From: Rhizopus arrhizus
Taxonomy: Eukaryota > Mucoromycota > Mucoromycetes > Mucorales > Rhizopodaceae
Length of the DNA: 64,000 nt
Direction of reading: 5' to 3'
Assembly (NCBI GenBank): GCA_024220505.1
Contig: JAKZZE010000006.1
Coordinates: 186,001-250,000, forward strand
Both the position numbers and the translations under genes were made by a program. Of this stretch, positions 9,189 to 18,400 are shown in pieces. Position 1 is the first letter of the stretch; each line of letters opens with the position of its first letter. The notes below the pieces were generated by a model that did not search any database, was not told the DNA's origin, and was given only the letters and a program-made list of their open reading frames with translations.

Positions 9189-12100
9189 TTACTTTTTCGA
9201 TAGCTTTGCTTTTGTCTCCACCATCGCATGCGCTGATTGCGGTGCAAATTTCTTTATGGCTCCAATCAGCTCAGGGAACCTTAATGGTTTAGTCACGTAT
9301 TCATCCTGTTATAAAAAAAGAGAAAGAGAAGAGTTAATATAGGATTATCATCAAAAAGCTTATTTTATCTTACCATGCCTGCTTCAAGACATTTTTCTCT
9401 ATCGCCAATCATTGCATGAGCTGTTAGAGCGATAATAGGTATATGTCTATTCGATGATGTCTTCTCAATTTCTCTAATCTTTTGTGTAGCTTCAAATCCG
9501 CCCATTACAGGCATTTGAACGTCCATCAGGATTAAATCGAAATACTGTGATTCGTATGCTTCTACGGCTAGTTTACCATTAGCAACAACTGTAACATGGT
9601 GACCAAACTTTTCAAGTATTCTAACAGCAAGTTTCTGATTCACATCGTTGTCTTCAGCCAATAAAACTTCTAGAGGTACTGTCTTTGATGCGTCACTGGG
9701 TAATGCAGCATGATTTTCTAAAGCGGGCAAGAGGACGTCAGATATATCGGCAATATTTTGAGGAGCGCAGATGTAGCCAGTAATACCCAAATCGATACAT
9801 AACTTCACATTGAGATGATGTACTTCAGGTGCAATCAATACAATAGGAGTATATCGCAATGGCACGATTTCACGAATCTTTTCAGCTAATGACATTCTAT
9901 CGATAACAACCGTGTCAAAGAAAGGCGCAAGCTTGCTCATATTTGAATTGGCATTAGCCACAATTGTAGCCTCTTCAATATCTTCCACGCGATAAGGCTT
10001 AAGTCCTAACGTACTAATTTTTTCTATCACGCCTGTTTGGTCATTCATGCTGTCCACAAATAAGATACGTCTGTTTCTGAAACGATGAATCTTTTCCATC
10101 ACTTCTCTTTCGTTCACTTGGAACCGATGAAGCTTAACCGTAAAGAAAAACTTGGAGCCTCTTCCATACTTCGATTCAACCCATAAGTTACCTCCCATCA
10201 GTTGAACCAAATGTCTAGAAATCGATAATCCTAAGCCCGTGCCACCATATTCGCGACTAAAGAAATGGGACTTTGAGAATTTGGTTTGATGCTACTTCAA
10301 AAAATACTTACGTAGTACTGCCATCGGCCTGACAGAAAGTGTCAAAGATAACATGGAGCTTGTCTTCTTGTATGCCTATACCAGTGTCACTGACACATAG
10401 TTCCAATATAACCATATCCTCTGTCATGTCAAGAACTCTTGTACGAAGCACAACCTCTCCTCGTGTAGTGAATTTGATAGCGTTACCAATCAAGTTAGTG
10501 ATAACTTGCCTTAACCTGAGAGAATCACCAATCACTTGATCAGGAATGAATTTATCGAAATGACAAATAAGATCAAGCTTCTTTTGGTTTGCTTTAACAG
10601 CTAGAGTTTTCACAACACTGAATATGGCAGAGCTAAGTGAAAATGGTATGGATTCAATCCTCATTCGACCTGCTTCAATCTTTGAGATATCCAGAATATC
10701 ATCTATAATAGTCAGTAAACTATTTGCTAAACCAGACACGATCATCAAGTTTTCTCTCTGCTGTCGATTAAGCTCAGTTTCTAGCGTGAGCGAGGTCATG
10801 CCAATAATACCATTCATAGGTGTCCTAATTTCATGACTCATATTAGCCAAAAATTCGCTTTTTGATCTGTTGGCTAATTCAGCTGTTTCTCTGGCCAATC
10901 TGTTTTTCTGAATAGCATCACGAAGTGAGCCCACCATCTGATTGATTTTAGTCTTTAAAGAGTCCATTTCACCAGAGGCCTCTACAGTAATCAACTGCGA
11001 AAAGTCGTTCTCTGTAGTAGCAGCATTAGCAATCTGAGCAAACGCACGGACTTGTGTCGTGAGATTTGAAGCCATCGTATTCACATTACTCGTAATCTCT
11101 CGCCATACACCTTCAACATCCATTACCTGAGCTTGTACACCGAGTTTACCTTCAATACCTACTTCACGAGCAACCCGCGTCACTTCCGAAGCAAACGAAC
11201 TTAGTTGGTCCACCATGGTATTAATGGTATTCTTAAGCTCAGCAATCTCACCGTGCACCTCAACATGAATCTTCTTTGAAAGGTCACCCTGCGCAACAGC
11301 CTTACAGACAGCAGCAATCGCACGAAGCTGATCTGTTAAGTTGCTTGCCATAAGGTTCACATTATCCGTCAAGTCTTTCCAAGTACCACCGACACCATCA
11401 ATCGTGGCCTGTCCACCAAGTTTACCTTCCGTACCAACTTCTCGAGCTACTCTTGTTACTTCTGCTGCAAATACACGTAGCTGATCCACCATGTCATTTA
11501 CAGTTTCCCTAAGTAAGTAGAGCAATTTCAATTTTTTGTATTTTTTTTCATATTTATAAAACATTTACTTTAATTCACGAATTTCACCTCGAGTTTCAAC
11601 TTCAATTTTCTTTGACAAGTCACCAAGTGCTACAGCTTTAGTTACCTCAGCAATTGAACGAACCTGAGTCGTCAAATTGGCAGCCATGATGTTCACATTA
11701 TCTGTAAGGTCCATCCATGTACCTGCAACACCTCGAACATTGGCTTGACCGCCCAATTTACCTTCTGTGCCTACTTCACGAGCCACACGCGTTACTTCAG
11801 ACGAAAACTCTCTTAGTTGGTCCACCATGGAGTTCACAGTAATCTTGAGCTCCAAAATTTCTCCACGTACTTCCACATGAATTTTTTTGGAGAGATCACC
11901 GTTCGCGACTGCCTTTGTGACCTCTGCAATAGACCGCACTTGGGAGGTTAGGTTAGCAGCCATGTTGTTCACGTTGTCGGTCAAGTCAAGCCAGGTACCA
12001 GCCACGCCTTGCACCACAGCTTGTCCACCAAGTTTTCCTTCTGTGCCTACTTCCTTTGACACTCGCGTAACCTCTGAAGCAAAGATACGAAGTTGGTCGA

Positions 12101-18100: not shown

Positions 18101-18400
18101 CTCTGTTTCTAACTGCAATTGACGTTGGGCTATTTTCTTCAAGTCTGAATCAATTTTTTGAAGCAAATCGGCATCTTTTTGATTTAATTGAGACAATATA
18201 GGATTAGATCCTATTGGTTTCGATAAACAATGATCTATATTTCCTTGCTCTATATTTTGTACAAGACTGTGAATAAAATATAACACATCCATTTCATTTT
18301 CACTGTCTTCTTTATGATTATCTCGAAGTTTTTTAGTTTGATGAGGATTATTACTATTATTATTATTATTATTATTACTGTCTTCAAAAGAACGTTTCAT
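9189..18400 (-). CDS. NIK1: Group III hybrid histidine kinase with 23 HAMP repeats
   Basis: Eight exons: 17911-18400, 17229-17825, 16898-17181, 16580-16846, 11569-16517, 10312-11508, 9374-10256, 9189-9305; all phases fit and give about 2,927 residues. Order: Asn-rich and coiled N-terminus without membrane segments (1-260), about 23 HAMP-type repeats of 92 residues (about 265-2385), histidine-kinase core with H-box MSHEIRTPMNG (His about 2421), N-box NLIGNAIKFT, G-boxes SDTGIGI and GGTGLGLS, then a receiver domain with phospho-Asp about 2840 in LILMDVQMP. This is the Nik1/Os-1/Bos1 class: a cytosolic osmosensing kinase upstream of the HOG pathway and the known target of dicarboximide and phenylpyrrole fungicides. 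Known members have roughly 5-9 repeats and about 1,100-1,400 residues, so this one is about twice the usual size. All catalytic residues look intact. Confidence 0.92.
11569..16517 (-). repeat. 18-unit coding tandem repeat, 276-bp period (HAMP units)
   Basis: One uninterrupted exon of the kinase gene holds 18 consecutive copies of a 92-codon unit, each recognisable by the GTWxDLTDNVN, VRSIAEVTKAVA, GDLSKKIEVE and EVGTEGKLGGQA segments. Units fall into a few subtypes by their linker (PNVDGTWK, QGVAGTWM, EGVAGTWL). Some copies are nearly identical in DNA: about 197 bases from 12064 match 14273 onward without a difference, exactly eight periods (2,208 bases) apart. That points to recent duplication or gene conversion rather than ancient repeats. 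The three HAMP units upstream (16580-17825) sit in separate exons and are more diverged, as are the two downstream (10312-11508). Confidence 0.95.

What the first reader, a model, noticed from the sequence alone, without database searches (positions are those of the whole stretch)
9189..18400. Nik1-type histidine kinase with about 23 HAMP repeats and 2,927 residues
Seen in sequence: 3 + 18 + 2 HAMP-type units of about 92 residues precede an intact kinase and receiver. Known group III kinases have roughly 5-9 units. The HAMP array is thought to be the sensing device for osmotic stress and for the fungicides that act on this kinase, so an array nearly three times longer could alter sensing range, signal transmission or drug response. 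The exon phases all agree, so the length is not an obvious annotation artefact.
Basis: partly seen in the sequence, partly recalled or inferred. Interest (0 to 1): 0.85.

Follow-up and report, generated by a model that had tools for sequence, protein, structure and literature searches.

The report
Giant HAMP-rod kinase with cysteine tip
This mould gene encodes a predicted stress-sensing kinase that carries 23 copies of a 92-residue HAMP unit in a row; related moulds and some bacteria also carry long rows, so the length alone is not unusual, while a cysteine cluster at the far tip is shared by moulds of the Rhizopus, Mucor and Mortierella type and would likely act as a metal or thiol switch.

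Summary
Eight exons (18400-9189, minus strand, seven GT-AG introns) give 2,927 residues with 23 units of about 92 residues and an intact HisKA, HATPase_c and receiver. A Rhizopus arrhizus protein from another assembly (P0011) equals residues 182-1294 and 1430-2927; a 402-nt GT-AG pair inside the open frame explains the gap. Each unit is held in print to be a pair of HAMPs, so '5-9 units' mixes 5-6 repeats with 9 HAMPs. The same genome holds at least four such kinases (23, 25, 14, 12 units), and relatives reach 30. Units are under purifying selection; end units keep their identity across Mucorales, and the middle of one paralogue was re-duplicated recently in whole units. Most unexpected is the HAMP that caps the array: it carries C-x2-C-x21-C, with a gap of 21 in all 85 fungal hits, usually followed by His or Cys; it was found in 0 of 40 unnamed or bacterial arrays with enough sequence before unit 1 and in 0 of 7 Dikarya, while middle units are nearly free of cysteine. 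I read it as a likely metal or thiol input at the rod tip. Function is untested.

The parts
9189..18400 (-). whole gene, eight exons (18400-17911, 17825-17229, 17181-16898, 16846-16580, 16517-11569, 11508-10312, 10256-9374, 9305-9189; stop codon 9191-9189)
   Evidence: spliced by hand, seven GT-AG introns, one open frame of 2,927 residues
17572..17664 (-). cap motif C218-x2-C221-x21-C243-x-H245-x2-C248 in the HAMP that starts the array
   Evidence: ligand role inferred
17419..17421 (-). Cys299 in unit 1, conserved in all four paralogues
   Evidence: a Cys in the first unit in 77 of 98 arrays
10980..17550 (-). array of 23 units (unit 1: 17550-17275; units 2-4 split by introns; units 5-21 contiguous 16283-11592; unit 22 split by intron 5; unit 23: 11255-10980)
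11569..16517 (-). exon 5, the long intron-free part of the array, 18 Pfam HAMP stretches
10668..10865 (-). HisKA domain, His2421 of the H box at 10833-10835
10127..10529 (-). HATPase_c domain, split by intron 6
9374..9667 (-). receiver domain as matched in exon 7 (its end would lie in exon 8), Asp2840 at 9521-9523
18323..18400 (-). N-terminal basic stretch MKRS...KKLR, possible nuclear signal
   Evidence: role inferred from another fungus (PMC11253588)

Best explanation
The window holds an intact gene for a group III (Nik1-type) hybrid histidine kinase of a likely Rhizopus with 23 repeats of 92 residues, each likely a pair of HAMPs, which are predicted to form a long dimeric rod that would relay a signal from a cysteine-histidine cap at its far tip to the kinase. 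Shown here: the gene model, the unit count, long arrays in many relatives, the near-constant 92-residue step, end units that keep their identity in Mucorales, recent whole-unit duplication in one paralogue, purifying selection, and the conserved cap residues. Inferred: that the units stack as 47 HAMPs (24 canonical including the cap, 23 divergent) in a parallel dimer of roughly 0.1 micrometre; that length changes by in-register unequal exchange between units; that the cap binds a metal or reacts as a thiol cluster and so clamps the two helices of the first HAMP; and that the kinase feeds the HOG phosphorelay as in studied fungi.
For: Gene and domains. Two HAMPs per unit: PMC3848655 (passages); PDB chains 9trk and 9trj (histidine kinase fused to Gcn4p) match the unit profile at 4.7e-93 and 9.2e-44; predicted secondary structure has a loop every 46 residues (low confidence, pLDDT 51). 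Long arrays elsewhere. End units: in 24 A-clade proteins picked from the tree the first four units best match window units 1-4 in 21, 23, 23 and 23, the sixth and seventh match in 20 and 21, the last two match units 22 and 23 in 23 and 24; the fifth matches in only 6 and the fourth from the end in 12. Turnover: paralogue A2 has 12 of 171 unit pairs with dS below 0.05 although the A1 and A2 kinase exons differ by dS 1.86; A1 and A2 are no longer colinear in the middle, and window units 8 and 19 are 96% identical in DNA. Selection: 136 unit pairs of the window, median dN over median dS 0.057. Spacing: 1936 of 2100 steps in named eukaryotes and 1374 of 1472 in the rest are exactly 92. Cap.
Against: No transcript, protein, metal or phenotype data. 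Both structure predictions are of low confidence, so neither rod nor cap geometry is shown. Turnover is not uniform: B1 and B2 are still largely colinear, and at the protein level middle units are hardly more alike within an array than between arrays (0.877 against 0.866 in the A clade, 0.875 against 0.842 in B, 0.840 against 0.825 in Mortierellales). In-register change follows from recombination between 276-bp repeats, so the 92-residue step proves no functional rule. Unit numbers of draft Rhizopus proteins (9-19) may be collapse or gene-model errors. The fourth cap ligand varies: 2 of 65 Mucorales, all 3 Glomeromycotina and 1 of 2 Basidiobolus motifs lack both the His and the following Cys. 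Cysteine is not confined to the tip: the penultimate unit has one in its last third in 72 of 98 arrays.
Confidence: 0.7

Rival explanations
1. The array length is near-neutral: unequal exchange lengthens and shortens it, and only the end regions and a minimum rod are needed; the cap cysteines are structural relics without a sensing role.
For: Unit number differs among related kinases: 23, 25, 14 and 12 in one genome and 11 to 26 among the non-Rhizopus A-clade proteins of the tree.
Against: Arrays of 20 or more units occur in 30 genera of the set, units are under purifying selection, and the cap residues keep a 21-residue gap across several fungal lineages.
Confidence: 0.4
2. The array works as a spacer or scaffold, placing the kinase at a distance from an anchor such as the nucleus or DNA, rather than as a sensor.
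For: A group III kinase of Aspergillus is nuclear through its N-terminus (PMC11253588, passages); a basic N-terminal stretch is present here; AskB, a bacterial kinase with an extended array, binds DNA in vitro (PMC7643160, passages); the window array gives the same kind of helix-turn-helix profile hits (PF01418, PF12116) as reported for AskA and AskB.
Against: In the window those hits are sums over repeats with no single stretch passing E 0.1; in Aspergillus nuclear targeting is not needed for the osmotic response.
Confidence: 0.15
3. The 23-unit count is an assembly or annotation artefact.
For: Four draft proteins of the same orthologue have 11, 11, 12 and 19 units.
Against: P0011 from another assembly carries the same sequence; window units 5-21 differ enough to be placed (mean 76% DNA identity); three of the four shorter models have poorly matching joints.
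Confidence: 0.04

Closest known systems
Fungal group III hybrid histidine kinases (CaNik1p, Bos1, TcsC, Drk1)
   Same: N-terminal repeats of about 92 residues, each a pair of HAMPs, then HisKA, HATPase_c and receiver (PMC3848655, passages)
   Different: five to six repeats there, 23 here; the cysteine cap is absent from the 7 Dikarya proteins with enough sequence before unit 1 (none of the four named proteins was itself examined)
Bacterial long poly-HAMP hybrid kinases (Amb07, AskA, AskB of myxobacteria)
   Same: extended poly-HAMP region compared with NIK1 (PMC7643160, passages); the unnamed or bacterial arrays found here have the same 92-residue step and one odd first step (97 in 95 of them, 93 in 77 fungal ones)
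   Different: many list PF13185 or PF01590 (recalled as GAF domains), not found in window exons 2-7; the cysteine cap occurs in 0 of 40 with at least 45 residues before unit 1
PDB 9trk and 9trj, histidine kinase fused to Gcn4p
   Same: match to a window two-unit tile, best stretch 156 residues, E 1.3e-76; best solved relatives of this unit by sequence
   Different: no displayed match covers the cysteine half of the cap (first 52 columns of its profile)
Aer2 poly-HAMP (3vol, 4i3m)
   Same: concatenated HAMPs; weak sequence match (3vol, E 1.1e-4) and best Foldseek hit (4i3m, E 0.053, from a low-confidence model)
   Different: three HAMPs in a chemoreceptor (PMC3570549, passages), distant in sequence

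Membership tests
group III hybrid histidine kinase | N-terminal repeats of about 90 residues holding HAMP domains | tested here: met
   23 units
group III hybrid histidine kinase | HisKA, HATPase_c and receiver with intact boxes | tested here: met
group III hybrid histidine kinase | kinase domain groups with group III rather than with other kinase groups | tested here: inconclusive
   tree of 129 kinase regions places it beside R. arrhizus P0011, but only HAMP-array proteins were in the tree
group III hybrid histidine kinase | no transmembrane segment | not tested
   no predictor run
group III hybrid histidine kinase | acts in the HOG pathway and in response to phenylpyrrole fungicides | not testable with these tools
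   needs experiment
poly-HAMP array | two stacked HAMPs per 92-residue unit | tested here: inconclusive
   sequence match to solved poly-HAMP kinase and secondary structure; model of low confidence
bacterial long poly-HAMP kinases with PF13185/PF01590 | that domain beside the array | tested here: not met
   absent from the translations of exons 2-7; exons 1 and 8 not scanned
metal-binding cysteine/histidine site | at least four conserved Cys/His with fixed spacing | tested here: met
   C, C, C, H in all four paralogues and in 63 of 65 Mucorales motifs
metal-binding cysteine/histidine site | binds a metal | not testable with these tools
   Pfam rubredoxin match only E 0.086, below its cut-off

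The most novel reading that the evidence does not exclude
The first HAMP of the group III kinases of Mucoromycota, Kickxellomycotina and Basidiobolus is a metal-clamped or thiol-switched sensor cap: C-x2-C at the first turn of helix AS1 and a third Cys with a His or Cys partner in the connector before AS2 meet at the same end of the bundle, so binding or oxidation shifts AS1 against AS2, the very motion that HAMPs transmit, and the cysteine-poor rod carries it to the kinase. It would be a defined chemical input at the tip of a poly-HAMP rod.
Probability: 0.3. Interest if true: 0.72.

Novelty: new variant of a known kind. Interest (0 to 1): 0.47.

Why it matters
What group III kinases sense, and where, is open although fungicide action depends on them; a cysteine in a HAMP of Drk1 has been tied to the response to fludioxonil, read as aldehyde stress (PMC6433957, passages). 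The data here say that array length is a lineage trait that varies in whole units, so models that give fixed jobs to HAMP4 and HAMP5 (as summarised in PMC3418262, passages) are hard to generalise, and they point to a specific, testable tip site. They also suggest that draft gene sets under-count these arrays.

Tried and rejected
Assembly artefact: rejected by P0011. Real within-species variation of array length: tempting (9-25 units among Rhizopus proteins of the A clade) but set aside; the joints in P0137, P0138 and P0028 match poorly, and collapse of near-identical blocks in drafts would give the same picture. P0139 joins unit 8 to unit 20 in register, just where units 8 and 19 are 96% identical, which fits either a deletion or a collapse. 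The 25 units of A2 have no independent support: its orthologue in G6F38 (P0125) has 10 full units with one odd step. Functional parity rule (only pairs are added because single HAMPs would invert the signal): not claimed, as repeat recombination alone predicts it. No step of about 46 was seen; of the steps near 138 (one 135, two 142) one 142 is the gene-model error in P0011, the others were not examined. Shared neighbours of A1 and A2: none found by tblastn of window ORFs of 60 or more residues against 6.6 kb on each side of A2. Structure: both models low confidence; the Foldseek search has no hit at E 0.001 or better and is not used as proof. Literature: the listings showed no title or abstract start on HAMP array size in Mucorales or on a cysteine cap, and searches returned nothing; only 8 to 20 papers per search were listed and the library is open-access only. 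Meena 2010 (PMC2852951) and the Phycomyces and Mucor genome paper (PMC5089372) are not held and were not seen.

A first negative control for the cap (0 of 105 unnamed or bacterial arrays) was too generous, because 65 of the 105 have fewer than 45 residues before unit 1 and many of those could not hold the motif; the fair numbers are 0 of 40 with at least 45 residues and 0 of 24 with at least 60, the fungal filter. In fungal hits the first Cys lies 25 to 70 residues before unit 1, 80 of 85 within 43.

Rows dropped before counts: fungal proteins with fewer than 60 residues before the first unit were left out of the motif count; one search was given 24 A-clade, 19 B-clade and 9 Mortierellales proteins picked from the tree, leaving out most draft Rhizopus ones; the 269 fetched proteins include 17 without any HAMP unit. 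In the kinase tree B1 entered with exons 7-8 only, because the script's landmark missed its exon 6. Some unnamed proteins counted with the bacteria are probably fungal fragments. Taxon groups were assigned from genus names by recall.

Full report
1. The gene. On the minus strand eight exons joined by seven GT-AG introns give one frame of 2,927 residues from 18400 to the stop codon at 9191-9189. Pfam HAMP passes its cut-off in exons 2-6, with 23 stretches passing E 0.1 on their own; HisKA, HATPase_c and Response_reg are present with their conserved boxes. The genome has 50.26 Mb in 41 contigs. Three of its kinases sit beside Rhizopus arrhizus proteins at near-zero distance in the kinase tree (window gene with P0011, A2 with P0125, B2 with P0151), and the B1 exon is 100% identical over 46% of its length to P0195 of R. 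arrhizus, so I take the genome for R. arrhizus or a very close relative.

2. Is the length real? P0011, from another assembly (contig 12,995 bp), is identical to window residues 182-1294 and 1430-2927. A 402-nt GT-AG stretch inside the open frame reproduces its junction exactly, so the annotation skipped coding sequence. This supports 23 units in an independent assembly. Four other versions of the orthologue have 11, 11, 12 and 19 units; three of the four have joints that match badly, so I use them neither way.

3. What a unit is. PMC3848655 (passages) states that the 92-residue repeats of group III kinases are concatenated pairs of HAMPs; CaNik1p has five repeats and nine HAMPs. The unit profile matches PDB 9trk (E 4.7e-93) and 9trj (9.2e-44), a histidine kinase fused to Gcn4p (names as deposited). 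The predicted secondary structure of a two-unit tile shows helices of 30 residues separated by loops, two loops per unit, but the model has pLDDT 51 and is no evidence for a fold. On this basis the window array would hold 47 HAMPs: 23 canonical ones found by Pfam, a degenerate canonical one at the start (the cap), and 23 divergent ones. With a rise of 2.2-2.7 nm per HAMP (my estimate from helix length) the rod would be about 0.1 micrometre long.

4. How common it is. The same genome carries A1 (this gene, 23 units), A2 (C1, about 2.14 Mb, 25 units read in two frames), B1 (C1, 0.35 Mb, 14) and B2 (C23, 12). Among 136 named eukaryotic proteins from three database searches, 102 have at least 12 units, 48 at least 20, 23 at least 23, and 10 more than 23; the largest is a Mortierella alpina protein of 3,638 residues with 30. 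Among 116 unnamed or bacterial proteins with units, the numbers run from 9 to 18, with one at 21; a named bacterial example is Myxococcus stipitatus P0100 with 15. These sets are biased: candidates were limited by length, lists were cut at 120, and scores are inflated by long arrays, so they show that long arrays are widespread, not how frequent they are. Extended bacterial arrays are already in print (AskA, AskB, Amb07; PMC7643160, passages).

5. How the array evolves. The step between units is exactly 92 residues in 1936 of 2100 cases in named eukaryotes and in 1374 of 1472 in the rest (totals summed from its list). The first step is often odd: 77 of the 91 steps of 93 in named eukaryotes and all 95 steps of 97 in the rest are the first, a shared landmark. 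End units keep their identity in Mucorales: across 24 A-clade proteins the first four units best match window units 1-4 in 21, 23, 23 and 23 cases, the sixth and seventh match in 20 and 21, and the last two match units 22 and 23 in 23 and 24; the fifth (6), third from the end (17) and fourth from the end (12) hold less well. In 19 B-clade proteins units 1-4 match in 16, 15, 15, 15 and the last two in 19 and 19. In 9 Mortierellales the last unit matches in 9, units 2 and 3 in 5 each. In 105 unnamed or bacterial proteins the last unit matches window unit 5 in 80 and unit 23 in 4 (all). Turnover of the middle is clear in DNA only in part: within A2 twelve of 171 unit pairs have dS below 0.05, and units 14-15 equal units 21-22 over 552 bases, although the A1 and A2 kinase exons have dS 1.86; A1 and A2 are not colinear in the middle, but B1 and B2 largely are. 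At the protein level units of one array are only slightly more alike than units of different arrays (0.877 against 0.866 in the A clade). The window's own middle is old: the lowest dS is 0.14, between units 8 and 19, which are 96% identical. Selection on the units is purifying (median dN over median dS 0.057 in the window, 0.07-0.10 in the paralogues). Unequal exchange inside one intron-free exon would explain this; selection on length is not shown.

6. The cap. Just before unit 1 lies a degenerate HAMP with C218-x2-C221-x21-C243-x-H245-x2-C248. The first three Cys, the His and a further Cys in unit 1 are invariant in all four paralogues, although B1 and B2 are only 59 and 58% identical to the window there. 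It occurs in 0 of 7 Dikarya, 0 of 3 chytrids, 0 of 2 Entomophthorales, 0 of 1 Syncephalis and 0 of 1 Dictyostelium. Among unnamed or bacterial proteins it occurs in 0 of 105, but only 40 of these have at least 45 residues before unit 1 and 24 at least 60, so the fair control is 0 of 40 or 0 of 24; none of the 105 has any C-x2-C there. Four misses are models labelled partial (P0140, P0071, P0045, P0217). A fourth ligand usually follows the third Cys: His two residues on in 63 of 65 Mucorales, a Cys within five residues instead in 11 of 11 Mortierellomycotina and 3 of 3 Kickxellomycotina; 2 Mucorales, the 3 Glomeromycotina and 1 of 2 Basidiobolus motifs have neither. Swapping of His and Cys at one ligand is what metal sites show (general knowledge). 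Middle units of 98 arrays have 247 Cys in 131,284 residues, and the window array has two, in units 1 and 22; the penultimate unit has one in 72 of 98 arrays.

7. Mechanism. In a HAMP the two helices run parallel, so the start of AS1 (C-x2-C) and the end of the connector before AS2 (third Cys and His) lie at the same end of the bundle (established HAMP topology; the low-confidence cap model agrees only in that helices run from 10-24 and 48-79 with the third Cys and His in the loop). A bound metal or a disulphide there would hold AS1 against AS2 at the far tip of the rod. In Drk1, a group III kinase, a HAMP cysteine (C392) contributes to fludioxonil sensitivity, which the authors read as a response to aldehyde stress; the same substitution did not change the response to allyl alcohol or methylglyoxal (PMC6433957, passages). 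So thiol input into this family has a precedent, not a proof. I therefore favour a thiol or metal tip, a stiff relay and a conserved proximal end, with array length free to vary. The tip function, the relay and the HOG output are inferences.

8. Verdict. The finding is real, but its headline, an extraordinary length, turns into a trait shared by many relatives.

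Noticed in passing
L009 about 7440-7490 (paralogue A2, unit 4): The reading frame of A2 breaks once inside exon 5, so A2 is either broken in this strain or carries a sequencing error; related proteins that read through this part exist.
   Followed up: partly
L009 (paralogue A2, units 9-22): Units recur at 99-100% DNA identity with a spacing of about eight units, a young higher-order repeat.
   Followed up: yes
18323-18400: 37 of 63 Mucorales models with a Met start and at least 100 residues before unit 1 begin with MKR, 35 of these with KK within the first 30 residues; it looks like a nuclear signal, and an Aspergillus relative is nuclear through its N-terminus.
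   Followed up: partly
11509-11568: Intron 5, inside unit 22, is present in A1 and A2 but absent from B1 and B2, where exons 5 and 6 are one frame.
   Followed up: no
L010 and L011, upstream of B1 and B2: Both B genes have a similar small ORF upstream, a sign of a duplicated segment.
   Followed up: no
11569-16517: The array gives repeat-summed matches to profiles PF01418 and PF12116 with no single stretch passing, the kind of match on which DNA-binding domains were proposed in AskA and AskB; such matches may be repeat artefacts.
   Followed up: partly
8660-9013 and 19211-19522: Neighbours: a minus-strand ORF downstream whose sequence is fused to the kinase in the P0011 gene model, and a plus-strand ORF with WFQNRRAKV, which I read as a homeodomain (motif recalled).
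   Followed up: no
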